Source: Marivita sp. XM-24bin2 (GTDB lineage: Bacteria > Pseudomonadota > Alphaproteobacteria > Rhodobacterales > Rhodobacteraceae). From it: a DNA stretch of 34,261 nt. Of the stretch, positions 15,430-34,261 are shown piece after piece. The translations under genes were made by a program, and so were the position numbers. The notes under the pieces are model-generated. The model saw nothing but the letters and a program-made list of their open reading frames with translations. It ran no database searches and was not told where the DNA came from. The stretch is from positions 1-34,261 of the forward strand of contig QCWH01000073.1 in NCBI GenBank assembly GCA_003149565.1, written 5' to 3'. How positions within the stretch are numbered: the stretch's first letter is position 1; each line of letters opens with the position of its first letter.

Positions 15430-15447
15430 CGGCCCCACCAGATCCAA

Positions 15448-15478
15448 CCGCCCTGATCCTCTCACCTGATCGGGGCGG
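15448..15478 (+). terminator. GC-rich hairpin after the VWA gene
   Basis: CCGCCCTGATC (15448-15458) pairs with GATCGGGGCGG (15468-15478) over 11 positions, with one G-U pair and a 9-base loop, 19 bases after the VWA stop. No T-run follows. It probably attenuates or processes the transcript within the operon rather than ending it fully. Confidence 0.5.
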
Positions 15479-15570
15479 CCACCATTCCTTAGCAGTTCAT
15501 CTGACCGCATGCCCTGCAATGCGAATGCAGACCTGCGACTGCTCGATACATTCTTCTCTCGAGGCCTGAC

Positions 15571-16650: not shown

Positions 16651-16728
16651 CCGCGCTCAACGCGACCTCATCCAAGAACTGGCGCAGCATATGAGCCGTC
16701 TCCGCCCTGACCATTCTGGAGAGACAGA

Positions 16729-18399: not shown

Positions 18400-19555
18400 C
18401 GCGACACCGGATCAGGTCAGCACCATCCTCGAGACGATGATTGACGCGCTCCACGCAGAGCCAAAAGACGCCGGGCTGATCCCACCCCTCATGATCTGGG
18501 GTCCACCCGGCATCGGCAAGTCCGCCATCGTACGGAGCCTTGCGGAACAACGGAAGATGGGGCTGGTTGATGTCCGCCTCGCACAGCGGGAACCGGTCGA
18601 CATGCGCGGCCTGCCCGTGCCGGACGGGGACAGCGTGCGGTGGTTGGTCGCCTCGGAATGGCCGCGCGATCCGGACAGCCGCGGCATCATCTTCTTTGAC
18701 GAATTGACGGCTGCCGACAGCACGCTTCAGGCGGCGGCCTATGAATTGATCCTGGACCGCCGCCTCGGCGATCTCTACCGCGTCCCAGACGGCTGGTACA
18801 TCGTTGCAGCCGGCAACCGCCTCGAAGATCAGGCCGTGGCGTCCACCATGTCCTCCGCCCTGTCAAACCGGTTCTGTCACCTTGAAATGGCCCCCGACAC
18901 CAGCGCCTGGCTTGGATGGGGACGCAAAGCCGGCCTCCATCCCACCGTCTTGGGATTTCTGGCGTGGCGGCCAGATCTTCTGTTCAAGTTGGAGCGTGAC
19001 AGTCAGCGCGGATGGGCAAGCCCGCGGTCCTGGGAGCGGGTCAGCTACCTTTTGAAACTTTTCGACACGGCCGGCGACACGCCACAGGAAGACCTCCTCG
19101 CGCTCCAGATCGCCGGGTTGGTCGGGGAGGCGGTGGCCACGGAATTCCTCGCCTTCCGACATATTGCGCTCGAAGGCCCCTCCGCCGAGGATATCCTGCT
19201 GCGCGGCCGGGAGCCCATGGTTCCGCGACAAGGAGACCGCCGCTTCGCGCTCGCCTCTGCCCTCATCCATGTTGCTCTGACACATCGGCGACGGCATACG
19301 TCCATCCTCTTGCGCCTTCTCACGGTGACTGAGGCCTTCGGCGCCGATTTTGCCGCGATGATCGTCAATGCGGTCACGGATGTTCTGAGCGTCCCGGAAC
19401 TCGAAGCCCTGATGGCGACCCCGGAGATGGCCTCCTGGCGCAAACGTCACGGAGTTGCCATCGGCGGCTATTCGCGACACACCGGATCGGCTTCTGCTAC
19501 CTCAGCGCAAGAGGACATGTTCGACCTGGATACCCTCATGAAAGCGGCGCAATGA
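18389..19555 (+). CDS. MoxR-type AAA+ ATPase
   Basis: A 388-residue ATPase with Walker A GPPGIGKS (38-45), Walker B IIFFDE (Asp104, Glu105), sensor-1 Asn143 in AAGNRLED and an arginine-finger candidate Arg161 in ALSNRF. A C-terminal lid extends to about 300 and a variable tail follows. MoxR ATPases form rings that remodel or activate partner proteins together with VWA-domain proteins. The ATG at 18389 lies inside the end of the preceding gene. The stop overlaps the next start as ATGA, giving strict coupling to the HExxH/VWA protein. All key catalytic residues are present. Confidence 0.92.
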   Translation: MQTNATPDQVSTILETMIDALHAEPKDAGLIPPLMIWGPPGIGKSAIVRSLAEQRKMGLVDVRLAQREPVDMRGLPVPDGDSVRWLVASEWPRDPDSRGIIFFDELTAADSTLQAAAYELILDRRLGDLYRVPDGWYIVAAGNRLEDQAVASTMSSALSNRFCHLEMAPDTSAWLGWGRKAGLHPTVLGFLAWRPDLLFKLERDSQRGWASPRSWERVSYLLKLFDTAGDTPQEDLLALQIAGLVGEAVATEFLAFRHIALEGPSAEDILLRGREPMVPRQGDRRFALASALIHVALTHRRRHTSILLRLLTVTEAFGADFAAMIVNAVTDVLSVPELEALMATPEMASWRKRHGVAIGGYSRHTGSASATSAQEDMFDLDTLMKAAQ

Positions 19556-20838
19556 TCCACGACGCCACAGGCCCCGGATCCGAAGAGATCGAAGCCTTCC
19601 AACGCCTTAAACGAGAGGCTCAGGACGCGCTGGAAAGCATACGCGCCGGGTTCCTATTGCGCCGGCCGTTTCTGGCGATGATCGCCATGCGGCTTGATCT
19701 GGTCGCGGTGATCGATGACCGTCTGCGCACGGCAGCCACGAATGGGAGCGTCATCTACTTCGATGCCCGGTTCTTCTTTGAATGCTCCGAGGAGAAACGC
19801 CTGTTCGTCTTTGCCCACGAGGTCTGGCACTGCGCCCTTGGGCACATGTCCCGGGCCGCCGGGCGTCTTCCCAACATCTGGAACATCGCGGTTGATCATG
19901 AGGTCAACTGCCTGCTCCAAGAGGACGGCTTCCCGCGACCGGACGATGCGGTGTATTTTGAAAAATATGACGGGGTGAACGCGGAAAGAGTCTATGATCA
20001 CCTTGTGAAATCTGGCGTGGATCTCCCGTCAGGCTTTGATCTTCACCTCCCCCTTGCGGGGCTGCCTCGAGAGGATGGCACGGGATCAGGCGATAACACG
20101 GTGCTGATCGACACAGACTTCCGGCCCTACGAGGCCCCACCGAGCGAGGCGCAGGCCACGCGTATGCGCCTCGAGGCCGCACGTGAAGCCAAGAAACGTC
20201 ATGGCACCCTGCCCGGTATGGTCGCATTCGAATTGGATCAGCTGGAGCATGCGCGCACCGACTGGCGACCGATCCTGTCCCGCTTCGTGAAAAACGCCAC
20301 GATGACCCGTCTCAACTGGTCGCGACCGCAGCGCCGCCATGTCCATGCGGGCCTCTACCTACCCAGTCGGCGGCGCGATAGAATGCGCATTGCCATCGCC
20401 ATCGATGTCTCGGGCAGCGTGTTCGATATCGCACCCGCCTTCATCGCCGAGGCTATGGGCATTCTCTCCCAAAGTTCTGTGACAGGCATAGACCTGATGC
20501 TGTTCGATATCGCCATCCGAACACGGGCTAACCTGACCTCTCCAGATGATCTGCCCGCTATTCTCAAAGACTGTCAGGGCGGCGGCGGAACAGACTTCCG
20601 GCCCCTGTTTGTTGACGGCCTGTTGGATGAGACTGTGGCGGCCCTGATCGTGCTGACGGACGGCTTTGGGCCCGCGCCTGACACCGCGCCCAAAACCCCG
20701 ACTTTGTGGGCCCTTACCTCGGACGGTGAAAAACCAGCGCCCTGGGGTGAAATGATCCGCCTGCCAGACTTGACACCTTCCCCTGAGCGGCGGCTTCCGC
20801 GACTGTCAATGCGACACCCCCCGCGCAGCTCCCGTTGA
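19552..20838 (+). CDS. DUF2201-type protein: metallopeptidase-like HExxH domain plus VWA
   Basis: A 428-residue protein with two parts. Residues 1-130 have a zinc-peptidase signature, HEVWHCALGH (His89, Glu90, His93, His98), followed by NIAVDHEVN (Asp115/His116), as in DUF2201 N-terminal domains. A linker (about 160-275) rich in basic residues leads to a VWA-like domain: DVSGS (Asp285, Ser287, Ser289), GGGTDF (Thr347) and LIVLTDGFG (Asp370). The MIDAS is complete. Families with this architecture are regularly paired with MoxR-like ATPases. The start overlaps the MoxR stop by 4 bases. A protease or metal-dependent adaptor activated by the MoxR ring is the likely role. Confidence 0.88.
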   Translation: MIHDATGPGSEEIEAFQRLKREAQDALESIRAGFLLRRPFLAMIAMRLDLVAVIDDRLRTAATNGSVIYFDARFFFECSEEKRLFVFAHEVWHCALGHMSRAAGRLPNIWNIAVDHEVNCLLQEDGFPRPDDAVYFEKYDGVNAERVYDHLVKSGVDLPSGFDLHLPLAGLPREDGTGSGDNTVLIDTDFRPYEAPPSEAQATRMRLEAAREAKKRHGTLPGMVAFELDQLEHARTDWRPILSRFVKNATMTRLNWSRPQRRHVHAGLYLPSRRRDRMRIAIAIDVSGSVFDIAPAFIAEAMGILSQSSVTGIDLMLFDIAIRTRANLTSPDDLPAILKDCQGGGGTDFRPLFVDGLLDETVAALIVLTDGFGPAPDTAPKTPTLWALTSDGEKPAPWGEMIRLPDLTPSPERRLPRLSMRHPPRSSR

Positions 20839-20869: not shown

Positions 20870-22003
20870 ATGAGCATTTTTACCTATTCAAGTCACGCGG
20901 GAACCGCACTCCTGACTATGCTGGCCTGGACGTCTTGGTCTGGACCAGGTCAGGCGCAGGAGATGGAGGCCCTATCGGGCGTCTGGGGCGCGCGCGTTGG
21001 TGACGTCGAGATCAGGATGTGTGCTCAATCCGATCCGGACCACCTGTTCAATAGGGATTTCGCCGCGATTTACACAACGCAGGACTACCAGATCGTGCTT
21101 CTGGACCGAGAGAGCAGCACGACATGGAGCCCGAGGCTTGCGCGGATCGTCAGCACAACAGGTCTTGATGATGGGTCTCTGCAGCTGGAGAGAGCTCCGG
21201 CAGACCTTTGGTCTGGCGTTACTCTCGTCCCGATGGAGACGGTGGAGGACACTGAGCCTTGCCTCACCCACGTCTTCAATGGGCCCCGGACCTTCCTCCT
21301 AGAACCGGTTGTGACAGCCACAGAACTGGATGGTGTGCCATACGAGGTGGTAAGCATCCTCGATCCGTCAGGACATGGAGGGGTCACCACGTTCCAGCTG
21401 CCTGGGAAAAGCCCGGGGCCGGCGGCTATCAACGCGTGGCTTGCAGACGTTCTGCCCACCACGGTCGAGGAGGCCCCCTATTATTCCTGCACGATGCATG
21501 CCCTCCAGTTCGGTGCCGGAAGCTTTTGGGAACATCGTCTCGTACCAGAATTGATCACCGACCAGATCCTTGTTGTGCAAGAAACCATGGACGTCTTTTG
21601 CGGTGGTGCCCGACCAAGCTATTCGATCGAATGGACCGTGTTCGACAGGGAAACTGGCGAGGAGATCGACACCAGTACGTGGATCAGGGAGGACGCCTTC
21701 TACGACCTCGGACATTATGCCGGACAGGGACCGGAAATCGGTGATCCAGAGGTGGCGAGAGGGTTTCGGGAGTTGATGGTCGAGGCGTTTACCGCAACAA
21801 ATCCCAGTCAATTCTGTCACGATTTACTCGACATCGTCGAAACTTGGGACGTCAGACCAAGCAGGGATGGGTTGGTACTCACGCCCTCAGACGATCTCGG
21901 GCCAGGAAGGGCGTGCGCGACCGGGTTGTCCTTCTCGATTCAGGAGATCACGCCTTACCTTATGGATGCGGCTATGATCGCTAGGTTGATGAAACGCGAA
22001 TGA
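20870..22003 (+). CDS. Secreted protein of unknown function
   Basis: A 377-residue protein with an N-terminal signal sequence (to about residue 30, GPGQAQ then E). The mature part is acidic, with several Cys (for example CAQSD, EPCLTH, YYSCTMH, VFCGG, QFCHD, RACATG) that could form disulfides in the periplasm. The segment YYSCTMHALQFGAGSFWEHR, then YSIEWTVFDRETGEEID and LTPSDDLGPGRACATG, recalls DUF3298-like layouts, but only loosely. It starts 31 bases after the DUF2201 gene with GGAAAG upstream, so it is probably the last gene of the operon. It could be a periplasmic reporter or client for the membrane-anchored products of the opposite arm. Confidence 0.6.
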   Translation: MSIFTYSSHAGTALLTMLAWTSWSGPGQAQEMEALSGVWGARVGDVEIRMCAQSDPDHLFNRDFAAIYTTQDYQIVLLDRESSTTWSPRLARIVSTTGLDDGSLQLERAPADLWSGVTLVPMETVEDTEPCLTHVFNGPRTFLLEPVVTATELDGVPYEVVSILDPSGHGGVTTFQLPGKSPGPAAINAWLADVLPTTVEEAPYYSCTMHALQFGAGSFWEHRLVPELITDQILVVQETMDVFCGGARPSYSIEWTVFDRETGEEIDTSTWIREDAFYDLGHYAGQGPEIGDPEVARGFRELMVEAFTATNPSQFCHDLLDIVETWDVRPSRDGLVLTPSDDLGPGRACATGLSFSIQEITPYLMDAAMIARLMKRE

Positions 22004-22628: not shown

Positions 22629-23000
22629 ATGTCTTTTGCAAAAGCGCAGGATTTGCTTCGCCTTGCCCAGATGGCGGCTGCCCGGCGAGGTGGCGTCAGT
22701 CTTGAGGACATCTGCATCGAGTTCGATGTGTCGCATCGCACCGCTCAACGGATGACTGAAGCGCTCGAGGCAACTTTCGTTAATGTTTCGACCGCCGACG
22801 ATGCGGAAAGACGGCGCTACTGGCGGTTGGCTCACTTTTACTCTGCCGTTGACAAATGGAATGGACGAAACAAGTGGCGCTCTTCAGGCGGACTTGACAA
22901 ACCGGCGGGGTGGCTAGCGCTTCGGCCACATACTGATCACAGGACATCTCTTCCAAATCGGTTGCCTCCCATGGAGCGTGCAATAAGCTTTGCGCCATGA
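22629..23000 (+). CDS. Short DeoR-type HTH protein (WYL regulator lacking its WYL domain)
   Basis: A 123-residue protein. Residues 1-70 match the N-terminal HTH of WYL-domain regulators (AKAQDLLRLAQMAAARRGGV, then DICIEFDVSHRTAQRMTEAL, ERRRYWRLA). After about residue 70 similarity stops and a short unrelated tail follows, so roughly 200 residues including the ligand-sensing WYL domain are missing. The gene has GGAG before its ATG. Its stop overlaps the ATPase start as ATGA, the same coupling seen between the next two genes. It may therefore be an internally deleted but still translated operon leader. A plain DNA-binding repressor without ligand control, or a dead gene kept for coupling, are both possible. 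Confidence 0.65.
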   Translation: MSFAKAQDLLRLAQMAAARRGGVSLEDICIEFDVSHRTAQRMTEALEATFVNVSTADDAERRRYWRLAHFYSAVDKWNGRNKWRSSGGLDKPAGWLALRPHTDHRTSLPNRLPPMERAISFAP

Positions 23001-24502
23001 GAAATGCAGCGAATCGGAGGCCGAAGACAAGAGAGGTGGATGCGACGCCATATGCGGCATCGCTCATCGAGGGTCATCGCGATTTTGGTTACAGCCTCGA
23101 GACAGCTCTTGCAGACATCATCGACAACGCCATCACCGCTGGCGCTAGAACGGTAAAATTGATCGCCGACACCGTCGCAGACGAGCCGTGGATCGCGCTG
23201 GCAGATGATGGTTCGGGAATGACAGAGACCGAACTGATCGAAGCCATGCGTCTCGGTTCAAAGAATCCGACGGATGAACGCGAGGCCGAAGACCTCGGTC
23301 GGTTCGGTTTGGGCCTGAAGAGTGCCAGCTTCTCGCAGTGTCGAAGGCTGACGGTTCTGACGCGGCAAGACGATCGGACATCTTGTGCGCGCTGGGATCT
23401 GGATCGCGTCGCGAAACGGAACGACTGGAGCCTCGAACTCATCGATAACCCCGAAGTTGTGACGGGCCATGACCTCCTTCTGGAAACCGGAACGATTGTC
23501 ATTTGGGAGAAACTCGATCGCTTGAGTGGCGGTTATACACATGATCGTGCGAAGCGGGCGGAACACATGAACTCGGAGTTGTCCCGCGCAGAACATCATC
23601 TTCGTTTGGTGTTTCATCGCTTTCTGGAAGGCGCCAAGCCACGTCTGACACTGTCGCTCAACGGTCGCCCACTGAAGCCCATCGACCCCATGGCAACTAC
23701 ACACGCCGCAACGCAGAAGGACCCAGAGGAGGTGCTGCGCCTGCGTCAGGGTGACGTGCTGATAAGTTGCCACACGCTGCCCCATCACAAGCGGATGAGC
23801 CGTGAAGAATGGGAAGAAACGGGCGGTCCAGAGGGGCATCTGAAGTCCCAGGGCCTCTACGTCTATCGCGAGAAACGTCTCATCATCGCGGGTGGGTGGC
23901 TAGGTCTGGCGAGCCAAACCGAACTGACGAAACTCTGCCGGATCGCAGTCGATATTCCAAACACGATGGACGCGGAATGGAAGATCGACGTGAAGAAGGC
24001 CTCGGCCCAGCTGCCTCCGGTGGTGCGTGAGCGCCTGAAAAAGGTGGTCGAGCGGTATGTCGGCACGTCCAAGCGGACGTATCGGAGCCGGGGTCAGAAA
24101 CTGGTCGATGAAACCCGTTTCCCGATCTGGAATCGGGTGCAGAGGGATGGACAAATCGTCTTCCGCCCCAACCTCGAGCACCCTGTCTTCCGAACCTATG
24201 CCGAGCATTTGCCAGAAGACTTGCGAGAGGGTTTCGAGCGGTGCCTGCGCATTGTCGGTTCAGGTCTACCGATCGAGACGCTGCACGCTGAGCTTGTGGG
24301 GAATGCGGAAGCGGTCACGGCTGACGAGACATCAGCAAACGATCTCGAGCAGCTGGTCTACTCCCTCGCAGTGACCCTGATGGAAAACGGTGTGCCGTCC
24401 GACGCTTTGTCGGACACGCTGCAGAGTAACCCATTCTTACGAGTGCGGTGGGAAGCCGCCGCGCCGATTCTGAAAGATTTCTTGAGGACACGGATTTCAT
24501 GA
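22997..24502 (+). CDS. GHKL ATPase, MORC/MutL-like, of a restriction-modification locus
   Basis: A 501-residue protein with an N-terminal GHKL ATPase domain: ALADIIDNAITAGA (Asn44), ALADDGSGM (Asp70, Gly72, Gly74), LGRFGLGLKSAS (100-110) and a Thr-containing strand ETGTIVIWEKL. A transducer-like region (about 200-345, with SREEWEETGGPEGHLKSQGL and VYREKRLIIAGGW) and a helical C-terminus follow. This is the MORC/MutL-like class found beside DNA methylases in bacterial R-M systems. ATP-driven dimer closure on DNA is the expected mechanism. It couples by ATGA to the gene before and by a 4-base overlap to the Z1 gene after. Confidence 0.88.
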   Translation: MRNAANRRPKTREVDATPYAASLIEGHRDFGYSLETALADIIDNAITAGARTVKLIADTVADEPWIALADDGSGMTETELIEAMRLGSKNPTDEREAEDLGRFGLGLKSASFSQCRRLTVLTRQDDRTSCARWDLDRVAKRNDWSLELIDNPEVVTGHDLLLETGTIVIWEKLDRLSGGYTHDRAKRAEHMNSELSRAEHHLRLVFHRFLEGAKPRLTLSLNGRPLKPIDPMATTHAATQKDPEEVLRLRQGDVLISCHTLPHHKRMSREEWEETGGPEGHLKSQGLYVYREKRLIIAGGWLGLASQTELTKLCRIAVDIPNTMDAEWKIDVKKASAQLPPVVRERLKKVVERYVGTSKRTYRSRGQKLVDETRFPIWNRVQRDGQIVFRPNLEHPVFRTYAEHLPEDLREGFERCLRIVGSGLPIETLHAELVGNAEAVTADETSANDLEQLVYSLAVTLMENGVPSDALSDTLQSNPFLRVRWEAAAPILKDFLRTRIS

Positions 24503-27237
24503 ATAAAGCCATCGAGATAGTGAAGAATATGGTCGAGAGTGGCCTTTACAATCAGCCCCGGAAGACCGAAGACGAGCTTCGCAATATGATCCGGGGAGTC
24601 GCCTCTGCGGTCCCGCCCGGCCTCAGTGATGACGAGATCGAGCAGATTGCGCGGGAGATTGAGCACAAGCAGGGCATCAAGGCTGGGCTTGGTGCGGTGG
24701 TCGACAGCGAGGATTTCGAACCTTGGCTGGATGACGCAAAGCCGTCGATCGAACCTTTCTACTGGAATCGCTACCGGAAGTTGCTGCTGCAAAATGGCCT
24801 TCCGAAGGATGTCGTGCTTACAACGGACACGGTCACGGACAAGATCCTCGGTCGGCTGGGCAACCCCGATAAGCATGTACCGTGGGATCGGCGCGGCATG
24901 GTGGTTGGCCACGTTCAAAGCGGAAAGACCGCCAACTATACCGGCCTGATCTGCAAGGCTGCAGATGCAGGGTATAGGCTGATCATCGTCATTGCCGGTA
25001 TTCACAACAACCTTCGAAACCAGACTCAGGCCCGGATCGACGAGGGGTTCATCGGCCGCGATACCGGAAGGTCCCAAGAAACGAAGAAGAGCGGGGCAAA
25101 ACACACCGTTGGCGTCGGCCATTTCGACCCTAACAATACGCCAGTCAGCCTTACCAATACGCTGCGGGACTTCAACATGGATACGGCTTCCACCAACACG
25201 AGCGAGATCGACTCGTACAAGGTACCTGTCGTCCTCGTGATCAAGAAGAACCATAGGACGCTCGCGAACCTGCTAGATTGGCTCAAGGACAACAGCGCCC
25301 GTGGCGATCAGGAGATGATCGACCAGCCGATGCTCCTGATTGATGACGAAGCCGACAACGCATCGGTCAATACGAAGTATGGCAAGAAGCTTGTCACGAC
25401 GATCAATGGGCAAATTCGGGACCTGCTAAACATGTTCCATCGAAGCTGTTACGTCGGGTACACGGCGACGCCATTCGCCAACATCTTTATTGACCCCGAT
25501 CAAGATGACGAGATGTACAATGAAGACCTCTTTCCGAGGGATTTCATCATCGGCCTTGACGCGCCCACCAACTACTTCGGCCCGACCAAGATCTTCGTGG
25601 ATGGACTGCCGGAGGACGGCGTTCCAACCTGGCTTCGTTACATCACCGACAACGATGACATTCTGCCGTTAAAGCACAAGATTGATCATGAGCTCGATGC
25701 GCTGCCGTCGTCGCTGACGCGGGCACTGCGTACCTTTCTGCTCGCAAGGACCATCAGAAACATGCGCGGGCAGCAGGCGGCCCATTGCTCGATGCTTGTA
25801 AACGCGAGCCGTTTCACCGCCGTTCAGGGCCACCTGCGAAACCGCCTTCACGACACGCTCGAGCGTGTCCAGAATTCAGTTCGCATCAATGCGAGTCGGG
25901 GCGCGGCCGCATTGAGTGATCCGGAGATTGCCGCGCTCCATGGCGTCTGGCAGGAAGAGTACTACGACACTGAATTCGATTGGCCATCCATCCAGTCCGA
26001 GCTGCTTGATGCTATCGCTTCCGCCAAGATCGTCGAGGTAAACAGCCGCGCCAATGATCTGGACTATTCGAGCTCCGGAGAACGGGGCCAGACCGTTGTC
26101 GCCGTCGGTGGGTTCTCGTTGTCACGCGGGCTGACGCTGGAAGGGCTGACCGTTACCTGGTTCCTGCGCAACACCATGATGTACGACACCCTCATGCAGA
26201 TGGGACGGTGGTTCGGCTATCGGAACGGCTACGAGGACCTTTGCCGCATATGGATGCCCAGTGAGGCAATAGATTGGTATGCATTCATCGCCAATGCTGC
26301 CGATGAACTGCATGATGAGTTGCGCACCATGGAAAAGGCCAAGGCGACTCCGCGAATGTTTGGTCTTGCGGTGCGGAGCCACCCCGCCTCTTTGCTGGTG
26401 ACTGCGCGAAATAAGTTGGGGTCCGGCCAGAAGGTCACTATGCGGATTGGCCTATCCAATAAGTTCGTGGAAACCGCCAAAGTCAGCATCAAACCTGGTG
26501 ATCTCACCGCCAATCTTGAACTCGCGAAATCTCTGATCTCGAAAATTAACGCCGGGACGTTTCATGAAGAGAGAACCCAATGGGGCAGACTCATAAGAGG
26601 CGTTCCGGTGGGCTACGTAGATGAATTTCTCGCGGGCTGGCGCAATGAAGATCGCAGTGTGACGACAGACCCCCGTCCTATCCGTAGCTATATCCGCGCG
26701 AGAAAAAGCGACCAGTTGCGGACATGGGACGTTCTCATCCCAAGTCTGGAAAAGGGAACAACGGACGACACACTGGGAACCGGCGTTGTTCCGGCGAACC
26801 GTTCTGTTGACCTTCGTGACCTAAAGCATGAGTTCATGTCTTTCAGTGGCAAGAAAATGAGAGTTGCGTCTCGTGGTATTGAAAAAGCTGGGGTCGACGT
26901 GTCGAAGGCTCAAACTGCGGAAGCAAAGTACCGAGCGAAGGCGGGAAGATCGGAAGTTGAACGAGTGAACTATCCGGACTCGATCTATCGGAAAGAAAGG
27001 GATCTAGGCCTTTTTATTCTGCATTTCGTAAAGGGCAGAGCACCTAAAGGAGAAGAATCCAAGAAGGAGGCTACGTTGATCCCGTCGGATCCCGTAGTTG
27101 CTTGGGGAATAAGCCTGCCCGAATCCAAATATGAGGATGAAGGCGAAGAGTTCATTGTAAACACCGTGAAATTCAGAGAGCTTTTCGGGGAAGACGACGA
27201 GGACGATGATCAGGAGGCTGAACTTGAAGCCTCGTGA
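24499..27237 (+). CDS. Z1-domain superfamily II helicase-like ATPase
   Basis: A 912-residue protein. Walker A GHVQSGKT lies at 137-144, DEAD-type motif II LLIDDEADNAS (Asp282-Asp286) next, and motif III GYTATPFAN (TATP 322-325). The Z1 core (about 400-640) contains the conserved SRGLTLEGL (542-550) and QMGRWFGYR (567-575), corresponding to helicase motifs V and VI. The C-terminus (640-912) is variable and ends in a very acidic tail. The ATG at 24499 overlaps the previous stop and is preferred to an in-frame ATG at 24448. Z1 proteins accompany GHKL ATPases in R-M-like loci and probably translocate on or open DNA for the nuclease. Confidence 0.92.
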   Translation: MNKAIEIVKNMVESGLYNQPRKTEDELRNMIRGVASAVPPGLSDDEIEQIAREIEHKQGIKAGLGAVVDSEDFEPWLDDAKPSIEPFYWNRYRKLLLQNGLPKDVVLTTDTVTDKILGRLGNPDKHVPWDRRGMVVGHVQSGKTANYTGLICKAADAGYRLIIVIAGIHNNLRNQTQARIDEGFIGRDTGRSQETKKSGAKHTVGVGHFDPNNTPVSLTNTLRDFNMDTASTNTSEIDSYKVPVVLVIKKNHRTLANLLDWLKDNSARGDQEMIDQPMLLIDDEADNASVNTKYGKKLVTTINGQIRDLLNMFHRSCYVGYTATPFANIFIDPDQDDEMYNEDLFPRDFIIGLDAPTNYFGPTKIFVDGLPEDGVPTWLRYITDNDDILPLKHKIDHELDALPSSLTRALRTFLLARTIRNMRGQQAAHCSMLVNASRFTAVQGHLRNRLHDTLERVQNSVRINASRGAAALSDPEIAALHGVWQEEYYDTEFDWPSIQSELLDAIASAKIVEVNSRANDLDYSSSGERGQTVVAVGGFSLSRGLTLEGLTVTWFLRNTMMYDTLMQMGRWFGYRNGYEDLCRIWMPSEAIDWYAFIANAADELHDELRTMEKAKATPRMFGLAVRSHPASLLVTARNKLGSGQKVTMRIGLSNKFVETAKVSIKPGDLTANLELAKSLISKINAGTFHEERTQWGRLIRGVPVGYVDEFLAGWRNEDRSVTTDPRPIRSYIRARKSDQLRTWDVLIPSLEKGTTDDTLGTGVVPANRSVDLRDLKHEFMSFSGKKMRVASRGIEKAGVDVSKAQTAEAKYRAKAGRSEVERVNYPDSIYRKERDLGLFILHFVKGRAPKGEESKKEATLIPSDPVVAWGISLPESKYEDEGEEFIVNTVKFRELFGEDDEDDDQEAELEAS

Positions 27238-28186
27238 TCCTTGGGACAGGCTCGATCCGGACGACGCAAAGCGGGTCGATGTCGCGGGCCGCTTCGATTT
27301 CTTCTGGGTGGTACTGGAAGCGGGCATGCCAGGCCTGATGTTGAGCCTGCCCGGCCTGCCGCAACCATTGCCGCGACTACCGAAGTTGAAGAACCTTGTC
27401 GCTTCGTTCCGCCCTGTTTCAGGTGGATCAGCATACGTTTTGGGCCTCAAGGAAAAAAGCCAAGTCGAGATCTTTGAAACACTTTGCCGGGATGTGGTCG
27501 AGGCCGGCGAAGCAGGCGCGGATCGCGATGAGGCGCTCTCGCGCGCGCTTCAACGCACGCGGCGTTGGTATCACCTTCTGCGCGGAGGAAAGAGCAATGG
27601 GCTGTCAGTTGAAGAGCAGCGAGGTCTTGTCGGCGAGTTGGCATTCCTTAGGGAGCTGGTGGCCGTGCTTGGACCGGACACAGCGATCGAGGCTTGGACC
27701 GGTCCCACCGGCTCGGCGAAGGATTTCGAGCTGATTGGAAGTTGCGTCGAAGTGAAGGCAAGGCGTGTAGCGGCAAAGCCGTTTGTGACCATTTCATCCG
27801 AAGATCAGCTTGCAGATGTCGAAGGCAGCCGCCTTTGCCTACGTGTGGTCAACGTTGCGTCAGCCGTTCTGCCGGAAGGTCAGAGCTTCCATGATCACGT
27901 GCGAAGGACTGCTGAGATGTTCGAAGAAGAGGGCGCGGCGTTCGAAGCATGGGAGGAGACGCTCTATTCAACGGGATATGATCCTGAGAACGACTACGAC
28001 GACAGGCGATGGCTTCTTGGCGCTGCGACCGATTTTGAGGTGACAGAGGGCTTCCCACGGATTTCCGTGCCTCTTGCACCAGGCGTGGAGAATGTCCGGT
28101 ATGCGATCGCTCTCGATGCCTGCGAACCGTTCAAACTGGAAGGAGATCTGATCGACGTGATCCGTAAGGGGCTTGAGCATGAGTGA
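27224..28186 (+). CDS. PD-(D/E)XK nuclease-fold protein (DUF4420-like)
   Basis: A 320-residue protein. Nuclease core: Glu138 in RGLVGELAFL, Asp167 in SAKDFELIG and Glu176-x-Lys178 in CVEVKAR, together a complete E-D-ExK site. It is probably the DNA-cleaving subunit of the locus. Start choice is unusual. An ATG at 27206 exists, but a perfect AGGAGG (27212-27217) lies inside that frame and sits 6 bases before a TTG at 27224, so TTG initiation is favoured. The gene then overlaps the Z1 gene by 14 bases. The stop overlaps the AIPR gene start. Confidence 0.85.
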   Translation: MKPRDPWDRLDPDDAKRVDVAGRFDFFWVVLEAGMPGLMLSLPGLPQPLPRLPKLKNLVASFRPVSGGSAYVLGLKEKSQVEIFETLCRDVVEAGEAGADRDEALSRALQRTRRWYHLLRGGKSNGLSVEEQRGLVGELAFLRELVAVLGPDTAIEAWTGPTGSAKDFELIGSCVEVKARRVAAKPFVTISSEDQLADVEGSRLCLRVVNVASAVLPEGQSFHDHVRRTAEMFEEEGAAFEAWEETLYSTGYDPENDYDDRRWLLGAATDFEVTEGFPRISVPLAPGVENVRYAIALDACEPFKLEGDLIDVIRKGLEHE

Positions 28187-30263
28187 TCTCGAAGAATTTC
28201 ATCATGAGCTTATCGCAGATATCCAGGGCGATGCCGACGTCCTTGGACTTGTCACAGTGGAAGCGTTCTTCGAAAAAGTCGGAGAGCTGCTCACGGAGGC
28301 CGGCGAATTGGACGGCGCAAGCCGTGCCTATTTCGGTGATGCAATTGCGGGTCACCAAGCAAGGATCGATGGTTACGGTGGTGACCCTCGTGACGGGGAT
28401 GGAATTCTGAGTTTAGTTCTGTGCGATTTCTCGATCACTGACGATGTGAGGCTCATCTATAAGAACGATCTTCAAACCCTATTGAACCGTCTATATCGAT
28501 TCCTGAAGGCAAGTTTGGATCGGGGTTTTCGCGAGCGAATCCAAGATCACCGTTATGCGTTTGGCGTAGCGGATCTCATCGCCACGACTTGGAAAGATAT
28601 CGAGAAGATCAAATTAATCATTGTTTCGAATGCCGATTCAAGGACCCAAGCCGACGCGGCGAATGTCAAGGATCTTGATGGCAAACCGGTTACCCTCAGC
28701 GTCTGGGACCTGAAGCGTCTCAAGCAATACATGGAACAGGGCCAGGCGCGGGCGAACCTGATCATCGATTTCGACAGGGATTTCGGTGGCAGCGTTCCCC
28801 TTCTTGCGGCCTCCGGAAGCGACAGTTCGCTCGAAAGCTATCTCGCGGTCATTCCCGGAATACAGTTGGCAGCCATCTACGACAAGTGGGGACCGCGCCT
28901 GCTAGAGGCCAACGTCAGAAGCTTTCTGCAGGCACGCGGTAAGGTGAACCAAGGCATTCGCAACACGATCCGCGATGAGCCGCACATGTTCTTTTCCTAC
29001 AATAACGGCCTCAGTGCGACGGCCGACGCGATCGAGATGGAACAGACCGATCAGGGCCTCCAGCTGGTGCGGGCGGATAATCTGCAGATCGTCAACGGCG
29101 GTCAGACAACAGCCTCACTGCACGCGGCGAGAAAGGCGTTTGCCGAGCAGTTGGATCGGGTCCACGTCCAGATGAAGCTGACCATCGTGCCGCGCGAACA
29201 ATCCGAACTCGTGGTCCCGCGCATCTCGGAATACGCAAACAGCCAGAACAAGGTGAACGCGGCGGACTTCTTCGCCAACCATCCTTTCCACATCCGAACA
29301 GAAGAGCTATCGCGCAAGGTCCTGGCGCGGGGAGAGGACGGGTATCGGGACACCAAATGGTTCTACGAGCGCGCGCGGGGGCAATATGCCGATGAACGCG
29401 GACGCAGGACCATTGCGGAGCGTAAGAGGTTCGATGCCGAATTCCCTCGATCTCAGTTCCTCACGAAGACCGACCTTGCCAAGTTCGAGAACACTTGGGC
29501 CTGCATGCCGCATATCGTGAGCCTCGGAGCGCAGAAGAACTTCGCGGAATTCGCCAAGCACATCGGCAAGCGATGGGGTTCCGAAGGAGCGGCGTTCGAT
29601 GAGCTCTGGTTCAGGCGCATGATCGCAAAGACCATCATTTTCCGGGCCACCGAAAAACTAGTCTCGGGCGCGGAATGGTACGAAGGCGGCTACCGTGCCA
29701 ACATTGTGACCTACGCGATTGCCAAGCTTGTACATGATGCAGAGGAACGGGAGATGGTCGTCGATCTGGACGCCGTCTGGAGATACCAGGATGTCTCGCC
29801 CGACTTGAAGACTGCGTTGTTGGTAGCTGCCGCCGAAGCTCAGGACGTAATCACGCACCCGCCCGAGGGCGTGCGCAACTTCAGCGAATGGGCCAAGAAG
29901 CAGGCTTGCTGGAAGGGACTGGAAGATCGGGAGTTGAGCTATCCGGAGGAAATCGACCGTGTTCTGATTTCGCCGGACCTTGCCAACGAACGGGCGAGAG
30001 AGGCCCGTGCGGACAAGGCTGTCGAGACCAGCGTCGAGGCGGAACTCGAGGTGCACAGGCTTGGCGCTGCTTTCTGGGCAGAAGCTCGGAATTGGGCGCG
30101 GGAACGTGGCCTTCTGTCTCCGCGAGAAAATGGGGTTTTGGAGACTTGCGCCGCGATCCCAAGCAAGATGCCGTCCGACAAGCAATGCGCGATCGCGATG
30201 AGCGCACTCAAGAAGCTTCAGGATGAAGGCTTCTCGCACGCGAGCCTTGAACTGACGAGTTAA
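28179..30263 (+). CDS. AIPR-domain protein (abortive infection phage resistance family)
   Basis: A 694-residue protein. The AIPR core is marked by FFSYNNGLSATAD (271-283) and LQIVNGGQTTASL (302-314), with RISEYANSQNKVNAADFFAN following. The N-terminal 200 residues are mixed alpha/beta; the C-terminal 200 are helical. AIPR proteins occur in phage-resistance loci; their enzymology is not well established. The ATG at 28179 overlaps the preceding stop by 8 bases, so the four genes GHKL, Z1, nuclease and AIPR form one tightly coupled unit. Its 3' end faces the methylase gene, with only three bases between the two stops. Confidence 0.92.
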   Translation: MSDLEEFHHELIADIQGDADVLGLVTVEAFFEKVGELLTEAGELDGASRAYFGDAIAGHQARIDGYGGDPRDGDGILSLVLCDFSITDDVRLIYKNDLQTLLNRLYRFLKASLDRGFRERIQDHRYAFGVADLIATTWKDIEKIKLIIVSNADSRTQADAANVKDLDGKPVTLSVWDLKRLKQYMEQGQARANLIIDFDRDFGGSVPLLAASGSDSSLESYLAVIPGIQLAAIYDKWGPRLLEANVRSFLQARGKVNQGIRNTIRDEPHMFFSYNNGLSATADAIEMEQTDQGLQLVRADNLQIVNGGQTTASLHAARKAFAEQLDRVHVQMKLTIVPREQSELVVPRISEYANSQNKVNAADFFANHPFHIRTEELSRKVLARGEDGYRDTKWFYERARGQYADERGRRTIAERKRFDAEFPRSQFLTKTDLAKFENTWACMPHIVSLGAQKNFAEFAKHIGKRWGSEGAAFDELWFRRMIAKTIIFRATEKLVSGAEWYEGGYRANIVTYAIAKLVHDAEEREMVVDLDAVWRYQDVSPDLKTALLVAAAEAQDVITHPPEGVRNFSEWAKKQACWKGLEDRELSYPEEIDRVLISPDLANERAREARADKAVETSVEAELEVHRLGAAFWAEARNWARERGLLSPRENGVLETCAAIPSKMPSDKQCAIAMSALKKLQDEGFSHASLELTS

Positions 30264-30266
30264 CGC

Positions 30267-31781
30267 TCAAAGGCTTTCGAATACAGGTAGTAGGGCTTCG
30301 GCAATCTGCTTAGCAAGAAATGGAGGCACTGCATTGCCAACCTGCACGAACTGCTCGGTGCGATTACCCATGAAATGGTAGTTGTCTGGGAAGGTTTGCA
30401 GCCGCGCGGCCTCGCGCACCGTCAGGCTGCGGCACTGCGTTGGGTCTGGGTGAATGAAGTAGTGCCCGTCCTTCGAGATGTGGCTTGTTACCGTAGAAGC
30501 CGGGGCTTTGCCGATCTGAACGCGGAACCTGTCATTGAACTTGCCCGTTTTCCAGTTCTTGTGGTTTGGCGCTAGGATGTCCGGAAACTGGTGCGCGCGT
30601 GGGCTAGGCCCCTCGGCTTTCGCGAAACACGCGGCGTAGAGGTAGCGCGCAAGATCGGATGGCATATGGCCTCGGGTTTCGTGACCTGAGACGCCGATGA
30701 GCTTCGGGTCGTCCAGAAACGCAGCGAGTCCCGGCTGCAGCTTACTGGAAAGAGGTTTTCTTACGTTGCTGGCGCGACCCAACTGCGAAGTCGCTAGAAG
30801 TCGTTCCTCGACCCGATCCAGCTCGTTCAGAAAGCTGCCAAAGTTATCGCCCGGATAATCCCGGACGATCTTGCCGACAGACTCGATCGCGTCGACCACC
30901 GCGTCGTACCAAGCGTGCTCGTCATCGCGTCTGCTCAACCCGCTTCGCAGCCTCGGCAGGCCTGTCAACATGTCCCTGACTGGAACCAAGGCGTTTTGCT
31001 GGTGAAGTTTCGGGGTGAAGTCACAGGCGACATCCGACCTGATCCCGACGATGATGACCCGGTGCCGTGCCTGTGGAATTCCGTGGTCCTCGGCGCGGAT
31101 AACGAAGTCCTTTGGTTCGGGTTTTGAGTCTGACTGGACGCCGGCCGAAAGGGAAACGAGCCTGTAGCCCGAGCCAGCGCGCTCGAGGTCGGAAGCGACC
31201 TGCTCAAAGATCGCCAACCCCTCGACAGACGAGGAAAGCATACCCTTCACGTTCTCCATGACGAACACCGCAGGGTTTAACTCGTTCAGGACGCGGCAAT
31301 ACTCGCGATATAGGAAGTGCCGGTGGTCATCCTTCGGTCTGTAATCCCGGATACCGGCGTTTCTCGACCGTCCGGCGAGCGAATAGGCTTGGCAGGGAGG
31401 GCCGCCGATCAGGAGAGTGCGATCACCGGCCAATCGCTTTGTCGCAGACATCCTCTCGGAGAGTATGGCTGCTGTATCCGGTTTTCCGAGCTCTGCGCAT
31501 AGTGCCTCGTTTTCGGCAGCTTTCCATTGCTGAGGGTACAGAGCTTTCCAATCCGGGCATTCGTGCTTCCCGGCAATCCATGAATAGTACTCCTGTGGAA
31601 ACTCATCAAATTGGCGCAAGAATGCGCGGAGTCTCAGTGTCTTGTGCGCGGCACGATCCTTTTCGATTGAGACGGCGGTTTCATAGGCGCGCGATCCATC
31701 GTTCCTCTTGCAAGAAGAGAATCCTTCACCGAGCCCTCCCGGGCCTGAAAACAGATCAACGATTTGAACGGGTTTCGACAC
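30267..31781 (-). CDS. dcm: DNA (cytosine-5) methyltransferase
   Basis: A 504-residue C5-methyltransferase with motif I VDLFSGPGG (Phe11-Gly16), motif IV GGPPCQAYS (nucleophile Cys130), motif VI ENVKG (176-180), motif VIII QARHR (237-241) and motifs IX/X with LTVREAARLQTFPD and QVGNAVPPFLAKQIAEAL. All catalytic motifs are intact. It would protect host DNA from the neighbouring nuclease. The start is uncertain: a GTG at 31781 gives MSKPVQIVDLFSG with GAAGAG upstream and leaves a 67-base divergent gap to vsr. An ATG at 31859 would overlap vsr by 11 bases and has no ribosome-binding site. The gene is convergent with the AIPR operon. The target sequence is not predictable here. Confidence 0.95.
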   Translation of the reverse strand: MSKPVQIVDLFSGPGGLGEGFSSCKRNDGSRAYETAVSIEKDRAAHKTLRLRAFLRQFDEFPQEYYSWIAGKHECPDWKALYPQQWKAAENEALCAELGKPDTAAILSERMSATKRLAGDRTLLIGGPPCQAYSLAGRSRNAGIRDYRPKDDHRHFLYREYCRVLNELNPAVFVMENVKGMLSSSVEGLAIFEQVASDLERAGSGYRLVSLSAGVQSDSKPEPKDFVIRAEDHGIPQARHRVIIVGIRSDVACDFTPKLHQQNALVPVRDMLTGLPRLRSGLSRRDDEHAWYDAVVDAIESVGKIVRDYPGDNFGSFLNELDRVEERLLATSQLGRASNVRKPLSSKLQPGLAAFLDDPKLIGVSGHETRGHMPSDLARYLYAACFAKAEGPSPRAHQFPDILAPNHKNWKTGKFNDRFRVQIGKAPASTVTSHISKDGHYFIHPDPTQCRSLTVREAARLQTFPDNYHFMGNRTEQFVQVGNAVPPFLAKQIAEALLPVFESL

Positions 31782-31848
31782 TTCACTGCTCTTCGCTGCC
31801 CCTGCCTTACCTCTTTCCAGGTTTTCGCAGACATGGCAAGGAGGAGAG
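31782..31848. promoter_or_regulatory. Divergent dcm/vsr promoter region
   Basis: The 67-base gap between the preferred dcm start (minus) and vsr start (plus). AAGGAGGAG directly before the vsr ATG is a strong ribosome-binding site. No clear -35/-10 pair is visible; promoters may extend into the genes. Confidence 0.35.
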
Positions 31849-32345
31849 ATGGTGGACATCGTCGATGCCGCGACTCGCTCCCGCATGATGGCAGGGATAA
31901 AGGGAAAAACACGAGGCCTGAACTGGCGCTCCGTCTGGCACTGCACGCACGCGGCTTCCGCTACCGTCTTCACTCAAAGAAAGTCCACGGACGACCGGAC
32001 CTCGTCCTTCCCAAGCACCGCGCCGTCATCTTTGTGCACGGTTGCTTCTGGAATCGGCATGAGGGATGCCGCTACTCTACCACTCCCGCGACGCGCGTAG
32101 CGTTCTGGCAGAAAAAGTTCGAGGCGAATATTGCTCGGGACAGCGCCGTTCGCGGAGCGCTGCTTGCGGCGGGCTGGCGCGTTGCGACGATCTGGGAGTG
32201 CGCCTTACAAAAGCCCGAACAGGTCGCGGCACCGGCCGACCAGCTTTCACGATGGTTGCTCTCAGAAACGGAGACGCTCGAGCTCAGCAAACGCGAGGTC
32301 TCGCCACCCACAGGAGAAGGTGAAGATGTCAGCTCGTCCAGCTGA
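31849..32345 (+). pseudogene. vsr: Vsr-type very-short-patch endonuclease, frameshifted
   Basis: The start MVDIVDAATRSRMMAGIKG is in one frame. The remainder, NTRPELALRLALHARGFRYR, HGRPDLVLPKHRAVIFVHG, CFWNRHEGCRY, FWQKKFEANIARD and GWRVATIWECAL, continues one base back. The change falls at an A5 run (31905-31909) where six A residues would restore Vsr. Either a one-base deletion (or sequencing error) has broken the gene, or ribosomes shift by -1: GGGAAAA (31902-31908) is in the correct phase for a slippery heptamer. The catalytic Asp of GRPDLVLP is present. The residue after GCFW is Asn where Vsr enzymes usually have His. In this locus type Vsr may nick T:G mismatches from deaminated methylcytosine. 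Confidence 0.85.
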
Positions 32346-32599: not shown

Positions 32600-32830
32600 A
32601 TGAAACATCGTAATCGCCCGCCTGAACAAGATGATCTTCTGCGCCCGCGCCTCGTTGACTTGATCGATATGCGCCACGAACTGGTGAAGCTGGCCGCGTT
32701 GATCGATTGGGAGTTCTTCGAGCGGGAATGGGCCGGTTTCTTTCCGTCAGGAACCGGGCGCCCGGCGACACAGCCGCGGCTTGTAGCGGGTTTGATGTAT
32801 CTTCAACATCTGCATCGTCTGTCTGATGAG
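32600..32830 (+). pseudogene. IS5-family transposase, 5' part, disrupted by insertion
   Basis: An ATG at 32600 encodes MKHRNRPPEQDDLLRPR through RPATQPRLVAGLMYL and HRLSDE, ending at codon GAG 32828-32830 where the IS110-family element begins. The frame resumes at 34218 with AVVERWVENPYYQH. Removing the insert gives a continuous match to the left copy, with one synonymous difference at the junction codon (GAG versus GAA). The disrupted gene cannot give full-length protein. Confidence 0.85.
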
Positions 32831-32835
32831 ATGGA

Positions 32836-32848
32836 GTGGTTGCCGCCC
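32836..32848 (+). repeat. Left subterminal inverted repeat of the IS1111-type element
   Basis: GTGGTTGCCGCCC is a perfect complement of the right repeat at 34200-34212 and lies five bases inside the left boundary. Confidence 0.85.
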
Positions 32849-32916
32849 TCCCAAAACGGCATCGCAATGTGCCAAGGTCGTGGTGCTCAACGCCACACAA
32901 ACAGGAGGACGGCGAG

Positions 32917-33945
32917 ATGAAGGATATGATGATTGGAGTGGATCTGGCAAAGAATGTTTTTCAGGTCCATGGTGCCCTGCGGACAGGTGAGGTGCAGTTT
33001 CGCAAGAAGCTCACGCGAAAGCAGTTCCCTGTGTTCATGGCCCAACAGGAGCCTTGCCTGGTCATCTTTGAGGCCTGCGGTAGCGCGCACTTCTGGGCGC
33101 GCGGCATGGAAGCACTTGGACACGAGGTGAAACTGATCGCGCCACAGTACGCGCGCCCTTTCGTCAAACGTCAGAAAAATGATGCAGCCGATGCCGAGGC
33201 GATCGTCATCGCAGCTCGTCAACCGGAGATGCGCTTCGTAGTACTCAAGACGGTTGAGCAACAGTCCCGCGCGGCGGTATTCCGCGGCCGGGAGCGGCTG
33301 GTTTATCAACGCACCGCAGATGTGAACGCCTTACGGGCGCTGTTGTATGAACACGGCCACGTGTTTCCCGCGGGAATACGTTATCTTGATCGCATGAAAG
33401 CGCTTGTGGAGGACGCAGCTTCAGAACTGCCCAGGCTGATCCGGGAAGAGTGCCAAGACCTGGTGACGCAGATTTCAGAGAAGACGACGCGTATCATCGA
33501 ACGGACCGCCAAGCTCAAGACGCTGGCCACTCAGTCAGACACGGCGCGCCGGCTCCAGACTATGCCGGGTGTGGGACCGCTGACGGCCGTTGCGGTGGAA
33601 GCGTTCGGACCCGACATGGCGCAGTTCAAGAAAGGGCGCGACTTTGCGGCATGGTTGGGTCTTGTGCCCAGGCAGCATTCTTCTGGAGGAAAGGAACGGT
33701 TGGGGCGGATGACAAAGGCCGGTCAGGCCGATATTCGACGCCTCTTGATCATTGGCGCAATGTCGCGACTGAACTGGCTGGGGCAACGCAGCATTGTGGA
33801 AGGGAGCTGGCTGTCACGCATGTTGGCTCGCAGGCCCAAGATGCTGGTTGCGATCGCGCTGGCCAACAAGATGGCCCGGCAGCTCTGGGCGATGCTGACG
33901 AAGAACGAAGATTACAAGGATCCGGCGCTGGCAGACGCGACATGA
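32917..33945 (+). CDS. IS110-family transposase (DEDD recombinase)
   Basis: A 342-residue recombinase. The N-terminal RuvC-like DEDD domain has Asp9 (IGVDLAKN), Glu52 (IFEACGS), and Asp89 and Asp92 (KNDAADAEAI). A coiled-coil segment (about 190-225) follows, then the C-terminal Transposase_20 domain with LQTMPGVGPLTAVAVEAFG, FAAWLGLVPRQHSSGGKE and RMTKAGQADIRRLLIIGAMS, the last including the conserved Ser region. The ATG at 32917 is preferred because AGGAGG precedes it. No frameshift or stop is seen, so the protein appears intact and the element potentially active. Confidence 0.95.
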   Translation: MKDMMIGVDLAKNVFQVHGALRTGEVQFRKKLTRKQFPVFMAQQEPCLVIFEACGSAHFWARGMEALGHEVKLIAPQYARPFVKRQKNDAADAEAIVIAARQPEMRFVVLKTVEQQSRAAVFRGRERLVYQRTADVNALRALLYEHGHVFPAGIRYLDRMKALVEDAASELPRLIREECQDLVTQISEKTTRIIERTAKLKTLATQSDTARRLQTMPGVGPLTAVAVEAFGPDMAQFKKGRDFAAWLGLVPRQHSSGGKERLGRMTKAGQADIRRLLIIGAMSRLNWLGQRSIVEGSWLSRMLARRPKMLVAIALANKMARQLWAMLTKNEDYKDPALADAT

Positions 33946-34044
33946 TGCTCATGTCGAACCGCTAGCAACGGTGCCAAGGGGGTGTGAGAAGACGACGACC
34001 TGAATGGGCAAAACGATCGAACAGATCCGGATTGAGAAAACCAG

Positions 34045-34152
34045 CAACGGCCTGCGAGCTGAAAGCTCGACGATGAGATTTGGACCCAATCCGCTGATTA
34101 CCATCCCGGCCCGCGGCTTCTGGAAGTGCCGCATATCGAGGCCTCACAGAAG
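34045..34152 (+). ncRNA. Candidate bridge/seeker guide RNA core of the IS1111-type element
   Basis: This non-coding 3' region contains four short guide-like segments in order. CAACGGCCT (34045-34053) is complementary to the right target flank plus core. A 6-bp hairpin (34055-34060 with 34064-34069) comes next, then GATGAG (34072-34077), identical to the left target flank plus core. CCATC (34101-34105) is complementary to the element's left end. A hairpin (GCGGC 34113-34117 with GCCGC 34128-34132) precedes CACAGAAG (34145-34152), identical to the element's right end plus core. Read against the complementary strand, this is the order target-left, target-right, donor-left, donor-right known for IS110 bridge RNAs, around a CT core. 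The full transcript probably spans about 33950-34200; its ends are not visible. Confidence 0.6.
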
Positions 34153-34199
34153 ACCGCGCTCGATCACACGTCAACAAGGTCAGAAACTTCTTGCGCTAC

Positions 34200-34212
34200 G
34201 GGCGGCAACCAC
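34200..34212 (+). repeat. Right subterminal inverted repeat of the IS1111-type element
   Basis: GGGCGGCAACCAC, perfect complement of the left repeat at 32836-32848. Three bases (AGA) separate it from the AG core at 34216-34217. Confidence 0.85.
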
Positions 34213-34217
34213 AGAAG

Positions 34218-34261
34218 GCCGTTGTCGAGCGTTGGGTCGAGAACCCCTATTACCAGCACTT
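34218..34261 (+). pseudogene. IS5-family transposase, continuation after the insertion
   Basis: The frame AVVERWVENPYYQH continues the gene interrupted at 32830 and runs off the right window edge. It matches the left copy (AVVARWVENPYFQH) apart from a few substitutions. Confidence 0.85.

What the first reader, a model, noticed from the sequence alone, without database searches (positions are those of the whole stretch)
34045..34152. Readable guide RNA in an IS1111-type element that explains its own insertion site
The element's target is known exactly because an uninterrupted copy of the host IS5 is present in the window. The 3' non-coding end holds a 9-base complement of the right target flank and a 6-base match to the left flank, both including the core, on either side of a small hairpin. 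Further downstream are a 5-base complement of the element's left end and an 8-base match to its right end, again bracketing a hairpin. Order and polarity match the target loop then donor loop of IS110 bridge RNAs (IS621), with the same CT core when read on the complementary strand. The segments are short, so chance contribution is possible, especially for the 5-base one.
Basis: partly seen in the sequence, partly recalled or inferred. Interest (0 to 1): 0.75.

Follow-up and report, generated by a model that had tools for sequence, protein, structure and literature searches.

The report
IS1111 element with verified guide RNA
A small jumping gene carries a short non-coding segment, very likely an RNA, whose loops spell out both the DNA site it sits in and its own end, and relatives sitting in other sites carry correspondingly changed letters, so the known guide-RNA mechanism of this transposon family very probably applies here.

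Summary
Confirmed, with corrections. Window 32831-34215 is an IS1111-group element (DEDD transposase, 12-bp subterminal repeats, long 3' non-coding region) inserted in an IS5-type transposase gene. Its 3' region (34000-34170) looks like a bridge RNA/seekRNA. In 66 elements with guide slots fixed by RNA landmarks, guide 1 matches its own right flank at 5.08 of 7 non-core positions (other elements' flanks 1.79) and guide 2 its own left flank at 4.41 of 6 (others 1.63); 0 of 20,000 shuffles reach either, also with one element per guide family (n=35). An unguided scan of 13,259 combinations ranks these registers first. The 3' donor segment equals the element's own right end, core included, at 7 of 7 bases in 71 of 78 elements. 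Corrections: guide 1 is 8, not 9, bases; guide 2 is a 7-base slot; the intact IS5 copy differs from the inferred target at one core base; the 5-base donor segment stays unproven. IS1111 guide RNAs are published (PMC11187229, PMC11208160): a new member of a known kind. Possibly new: the core position that varies is the opposite one from IS621.

The parts
32831..34215 (+). IS1111-group element, 1385 bp between the two AG core copies (1387 bp with 7-bp left and 3-bp right extensions if the left AG is counted in, the published convention)
   Evidence: sTIR pairing, interrupted IS5-type gene, relatives with the same ends; 7/3 extension convention from PMC11187229 passages
32829..32830 (+). left copy of the AG core (CT on the other strand)
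34216..34217 (+). right copy of the AG core
32824..32830 (+). left half of the target read by guide 2 (TGATGAG)
34216..34223 (+). right half of the target read by guide 1 (AGGCCGTT)
32836..32847 (+). left subterminal inverted repeat GTGGTTGCCGCC
34201..34212 (-). right subterminal inverted repeat GGCGGCAACCAC
32917..33945 (+). DEDD transposase/recombinase, 342 aa, with GLVPRQHSSG motif at residue 248
   Evidence: PF01548 3.3e-09 and PF02371 6.6e-24; motif; nearest solved chains ISCro4 9t56 and IS621 8wt6
34000..34170 (+). predicted bridge RNA/seekRNA body, two-part structure closed by GATCGA 34015-34020 / TCGATC 34160-34165
   Evidence: RNAalifold on 33 elements, 36 pairs, 9 with a change on both sides; single-sequence fold z -2.73; model R1
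34046..34053 (+). guide 1 (AACGGCCT), pairs with the top strand of the right target half and core
   Evidence: covariation
34056..34068 (+). hairpin between the two target guides (GAGC/GCTC stem)
   Evidence: coordinates
34071..34077 (+). guide 2 (CGATGAG), pairs with the bottom strand of the left target half and core; first base mismatched here
   Evidence: covariation
34101..34105 (+). proposed left donor guide CCATC, complementary to the element's left end
   Evidence: sequence only; covariation inconclusive
34108..34143 (+). stem-loop between the donor segments (GGCC 34108-34111 / GGCC 34140-34143, inner hairpin)
   Evidence: coordinates
34145..34152 (+). right donor guide CACAGAAG (7 covarying bases ACAGAAG plus one), matches the element's right end and core
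   Evidence: 71 of 78 elements match at 7 of 7
34190..34196 (+). CTTGC-type -35-like motif near the right end, conserved at 26 bases before the core in 78 of 87 elements; possible junction promoter in the circle (inference)
   Evidence: published precedent ISEc11/ISEc21 (PMC11187229, and passages)

Best explanation
The region is the guide RNA of an IS1111-group insertion sequence. The transposase gene and the downstream region are transcribed (inferred). The RNA folds into a target half and a donor half (predicted). In the target half, guide 1 (34046-34053) pairs with the top strand of the right target half and guide 2 (34071-34077) with the bottom strand of the left target half, overlapping on the 2-bp core, so 13 bp of target are read. 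In the donor half the segment 34145-34152 reads the element's right end and core; a short segment at 34101-34105 probably reads the left end. The DEDD recombinase, with this RNA, joins the circular element to the target at the core, inserting in one orientation without further duplication. Shown here: the coupled variation of both target guides and of the right donor guide with the corresponding DNA. Inferred from published work on the family: transcription, RNA-protein complex, circle, strand exchange.
For: Fixed-slot test: n=66, guide 1 5.08 vs 1.79 of 7, guide 2 4.41 vs 1.63 of 6, 0 of 20,000 permutations; one per guide family n=35, 5.03 vs 1.75 and 4.29 vs 1.59, own flank best or tied in 31 of 35, strictly best in 29. 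Unguided scan of 13,259 combinations: the top 17 all lie on the guide registers or the core. Right donor guide: 7 of 7 in 71 of 78, 14 distinct right ends, shuffles reach at most 24. Core agrees in all five places in 50 of 86 (39 AG, 11 TG) and in all readable places in 17 more. Window guides 10 of 11 with own flanks, best other 6. Structure conserved. Model R1 finds the RNA in 136 of 390 genomes of the order sample and 118 of 394 of the family sample (the samples overlap). Published experiments on IS1111 seekRNAs in PMC11187229 (abstract and sections 6, 9, 12, 13, 14 read).
Against: No transcript was seen; only predictions. Some elements fit badly: L022 2 of 13 (its ends look misassigned), L041 and L211 1 of 7 for guide 1, L038 and L152 1 of 6 for guide 2. 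19 of 86 elements disagree in the core in at least one readable place. Seven of 78 right donor guides are one base off. The left donor guide is not confirmed. Signals of z 5-6 also occur outside the guides (34001, 34003, 34118 against core positions or -3), so weaker z values in that scan mean little; they probably reflect clade-linked cores. The strand-specific wobble bias expected of RNA pairing is weak: 29 against 13, p 0.02 on an even expectation, with a background of 4775:4242.
Confidence: 0.95

Rival explanations
1. The matches are chance, picked by eye from a 256-base region.
Against: Registers recur at the same RNA columns in dozens of elements with different targets and the right donor guide follows the right end.
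Confidence: 0.01
2. The segments work as DNA (microhomology or a protein-read DNA site), not as RNA.
For: No transcript data here; the wobble bias that would favour RNA is weak.
Against: The two guides match opposite strands, lie on either side of a conserved hairpin inside a conserved fold with some compensatory changes, and IS1111 transposases co-purify with RNA from this region (PMC11187229, sections 9 and 14).
Confidence: 0.03
3. The element inserted by another route (for example carried with a rearranged IS5 copy), and its guides match only because they evolved towards the present flanks.
For: The exact pre-insertion target is not present as an IS5 copy in the genome: the IS5-type copies seen carry GATGAAGCC.
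Against: The same guide-flank relation holds in genomes and sites that have nothing to do with IS5; one base in the core separates the inferred target from the IS5 copies.
Confidence: 0.02

Closest known systems
IS1111-family seekRNA (ISEc11, ISKpn4, ISPa11, ISPst6; Siddiquee et al. 2024, PMC11187229)
   Same: 3' non-coding region downstream of a ~340 aa DEDD transposase, sTIR, left extension 7 and right 3, two target matches with the top-strand match 5' of the bottom-strand match, GL-P----S(t)G motif.
   Different: Different target and sequence. In the sections and passages I saw, the paper treats target matches; I saw no donor-end guide there and only one use of the word core. The donor guide and core covariation is measured here.
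IS110-group bridge RNA, IS621 (Durrant et al. 2024 PMC11208160; Hiraizumi et al. 2024 PMC11208158)
   Same: Target loop and donor loop, each with two guide segments around a hairpin, all including the core; same polarity once the target strands are swapped.
   Different: RNA in the 3' end, not 5'. Target guides 8 and 7 nt (13 bp) instead of 9 and 4 (11 bp). Right donor segment dominant, left one only 4-5 nt. Core read in the RNA frame is C plus a variable base, while in IS621 the second base T is almost invariant and the first less so (passage).
ISCro4 recombinase (PDB 9t56)
   Same: Nearest solved chain by sequence (E 3.1e-11, residues 210-285).
   Different: Match covers only the C-terminal domain; which subgroup it belongs to was not checked here.

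Membership tests
IS1111 group of IS110-type insertion sequences | DEDD transposase with PF01548 and PF02371, about 330-350 aa | tested here: met
   342 aa; both families above cut-off
IS1111 group of IS110-type insertion sequences | GL-P----S(t)G motif in the C-terminal domain | tested here: met
   GLVPRQHSSG at residue 248; motif from PMC11187229 section 6
IS1111 group of IS110-type insertion sequences | subterminal inverted repeats of 11-13 bp with 7-bp left and 3-bp right extensions | tested here: met
   12 bp perfect; AGATGGA and AGA
IS1111 group of IS110-type insertion sequences | long non-coding region downstream of the transposase gene | tested here: met
   255 bases from stop codon to the right sTIR (33946-34200)
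IS1111 group of IS110-type insertion sequences | insertion without target duplication | tested here: inconclusive
   Lengths fit a single core shared by both flanks, but the intact copy differs by one base there
seekRNA / bridge RNA | two target-matching segments, top-strand match 5' of bottom-strand match (IS1111 order) | tested here: met
seekRNA / bridge RNA | target segments change with the insertion site among relatives | tested here: met
   0 of 20,000 permutations
seekRNA / bridge RNA | donor-matching segments (right end) | tested here: met
   71 of 78
seekRNA / bridge RNA | donor-matching segments (left end) | tested here: inconclusive
   14 of 82 elements in the tally match at all 5 bases; 4 bases are nearly invariant
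seekRNA / bridge RNA | conserved RNA fold | tested here: met
   36 pairs, 9 with changes on both sides, but many pairs invariant
seekRNA / bridge RNA | RNA is transcribed and bound by the transposase | not testable with these tools
   no expression data
curated Rfam family | match at gathering score | tested here: not met
   0 matches in the window
IS621-type bridge RNA (IS110 group) | RNA in the left end, 5' of the recombinase gene | tested here: not met
   it lies 3'

The most novel reading that the evidence does not exclude
In this IS1111 lineage the core dinucleotide is itself guide-encoded with its own rule: the base next to the element's left end (G in the element's frame, C in the RNA frame) is fixed, while the other base is free (A, T, rarely G or C) and switches together in the target guides, the right donor guide and both DNA flanks. 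In IS621 it is the other core position that is almost invariant. A group with left TG and right CG (L024, L208, and the minus-strand element of L058) would mean that target and donor cores may even differ naturally.
Probability: 0.45. Interest if true: 0.5.

Novelty: new member of a known kind. Interest (0 to 1): 0.4.

Why it matters
It shows from sequence alone that RNA guiding in the IS1111 group extends beyond the few elements tested at the bench: target guides and right donor guide follow their DNA across a large alphaproteobacterial lineage. The guide lengths (8 and 7) and the natural variation of one core base give concrete, testable rules for retargeting, complementing IS621, where non-CT cores were tested by design and worked less well (passage).

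Tried and rejected
Rfam gave nothing. The first covariation listing used longest shared words and mixed real guides with chance words elsewhere in the region; it was replaced by fixed slots and an unguided scan. My first core table read the donor core from the wrong two letters; that column was discarded and redone; the 7-base donor table is unaffected. The wobble-asymmetry test is too weak to lean on. Search for the same guide pair elsewhere: 1 of 390 genomes, the own one, 0 viral contigs. The other exact copy of GATGAGGCCGTTG in the genome (contig C25) showed no similarity to the window's IS5-type sequence in the comparison made. Sigma-70 scan was not run; the promoter remark rests and the published precedent.

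Rows dropped: of 217 loci then held I gave 170 plus the window to the RNA model, leaving out 47 that I judged duplicates or distant fragments. 159 matches (window twice); 36 without recognisable ends, 12 duplicates, 111 left, 24 more dropped for doubtful ends, 87 left; 1 without anchor, 86; 20 more dropped for imperfect anchors, 66 in the test.

Full report
The element. The window is one whole contig of a 4.43 Mb draft genome; close relatives of its transposase lie in Marivita, Roseovarius and other Rhodobacterales. A 342-aa transposase gene (32917-33945) matches both IS110 domains, carries the GLVPRQHSSG motif and is nearest, among solved chains, to ISCro4 and IS621. Perfect 12-bp subterminal repeats lie at 32836-32847 and 34201-34212, with AG-ATGGA outside on the left and AGA on the right, as described for the IS1111 group (PMC11187229, section 6 and passages). 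The element interrupts an IS5-type transposase gene (DUF772 in the intact copy) in codons for Asp-Glu-Ala-Val-Val.

The observation. All four segments are present at the stated places. The intact IS5 copy of the window reads GATGAAGCCGTTG; the inferred pre-insertion site is GATGAGGCCGTTG, so the two differ by one base in the core. By themselves the short matches are not all beyond chance: 40 of 85 left flanks of other elements find a word of 6 or more in the window's non-coding region, while 0 of 85 right flanks reach 9.

The test. I collected relatives from the genus (15 of 17 genomes with a transposase match), the GTDB genome contigs (40 loci), the family (40 of 394 genomes by DNA) and plasmids (four loci of 30 listed hits). 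A first 33-element alignment of the non-coding region gave a conserved fold: an outer stem GATCGA/TCGATC, a target half with an internal hairpin, and a donor half with a GGCC/GGCC stem; 36 pairs, 9 with at least one change on both sides. The covariance model R1 then found the RNA in 136 of 390 genomes sampled from the order and 118 of 394 sampled from the family; 60 further stretches were fetched. From 159 model matches, 87 elements had both ends.

Target guides. With slots set by RNA landmarks alone, 66 elements could be scored. Guide 1 matches the complement of its own right flank at 5.08 of 7 non-core positions, other elements' flanks at 1.79; guide 2 its own left flank at 4.41 of 6, others 1.63; 0 of 20,000 permutations reach either. 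With one element per guide family: all sTIR types n=35, 5.03 vs 1.75 and 4.29 vs 1.59; the GTTGCCGCC-type clade n=23, 5.22 vs 1.81 and 4.43 vs 1.64. The outermost position of each slot is at background, so the guides are 8 nt (6+2 core) and 7 nt (5+2 core) and the target is 13 bp. The poorest fits are L022 (2 of 13, doubtful ends), L041, L211, L128, L038 and L152 (6 of 13). The window scores 11 of 13.

Unguided scan. Over 87 elements (effective number 56.2) I compared every well-filled RNA column with every flank position from -20 to +20 on both strands, 13,259 combinations with enough variance. The nine highest z values (13.1 to 9.3) lie on two diagonals: RNA 34048-34051 against +6 to +3, complementary, and RNA 34071-34075 against -7 to -3, identical. 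Ranks 10-17 are the core positions and the outer guide 1 positions +7 and +8. From rank 18 down, off-register neighbours and a few constant-region columns appear at z 5-6.4.

Donor guide and core. In 78 elements where the landmark GGC[CT]T was found, the following segment equals the element's right end plus core at 7 of 7 bases in 71, over 14 distinct right ends; the other 7 are one base off; shuffling reaches at most 24. The left donor segment is nearly invariant, matches at all five bases in 14 of 82, and remains open. In 86 elements the left core is AG 56, TG 26, CG 2, GG 1, GA 1 and the right core AG 54, TG 22, GG 4, CG 4, AA 1, GT 1. Left core, right core, both target guides and right donor guide agree fully in 50 (39 AG, 11 TG) and in all readable places in 17 more; 19 disagree somewhere. 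The single element with GG on both sides, L050, has GG in guide 2 and the donor guide, and CC at the end of guide 1 one base out of register. The second core base is G in 85 of 86 left and 84 of 86 right flanks. In the RNA frame this means C fixed, second base free; in IS621 the second base T is almost invariant and the first less conserved (PMC11208158, passage). These elements are related, so the number of independent core switches is small; AG occurs with both GTTGCCGCC- and GGATGCCGCT-type repeats, so it is probably more than one (inference).

Mechanism. I read this as the published IS1111 seekRNA/bridge RNA system. Coupled variation is shown; transcription, RNA binding, circle formation and strand exchange are taken over from PMC11187229 (abstract, sections 6, 9, 12, 13, 14 and passages), PMC11208160 (passages and section 12) and PMC11208158 (passages). 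A CTTGC motif lies 26 bases before the core in 78 of 87 elements (27 in 4, 23 in 1, absent in 4), a spacing that would put the -10 region on the circle junction; a junction promoter is published for ISEc11 and ISEc21.

Novelty. Literature searches in an open-licence library found the three 2024 papers above and no later large-scale covariation study of IS1111 elements; papers outside that library, and preprints, were not searched. Durrant et al. describe covariation models for IS1111 and manual inspection of loops in six IS110/IS1111 elements (section 12), and Siddiquee et al. mention natural re-programming among relatives (section 14). So the window holds a new member of a known kind. The bold reading, the core rule, deserves a tree-weighted test.

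Noticed in passing
window 22997-32345: Genes matching PADLOC models MzaB, MzaC, MzaD and MzaE in order (E 6.4e-88, 1.5e-133, 4e-18, 2.6e-89), followed by a cytosine methyltransferase on the other strand and a Vsr endonuclease: a likely Mza-type anti-phage system next to the IS. The gene before it (20870-22003) had no PADLOC match.
   Followed up: partly
window 14107-20838: Cluster of VWA protein, two proteins without Pfam match, AAA ATPase and DUF2201 metallopeptidase/VWA protein, function not examined.
   Followed up: no
L024, L208 and the minus-strand element of L058: Left flank core TG but right flank core CG, with CG in guide 2 and the donor guide: target and donor cores may differ. In L014 and L015 the guides carry G and U at the variable core base, which could accept both T and C by wobble (inference).
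   Followed up: partly
L060: Two IS1111-type elements side by side: the right flank of one is the left target half of the other.
   Followed up: no
contig C25 of the own genome, L219 1501-1513: An unoccupied exact copy of the inferred 13-bp target in a gene unrelated to IS5.
   Followed up: partly
L038/L078 against L044/L077: Guide 1 is identical but guide 2 differs, so the two target guides seem to change independently.
   Followed up: no
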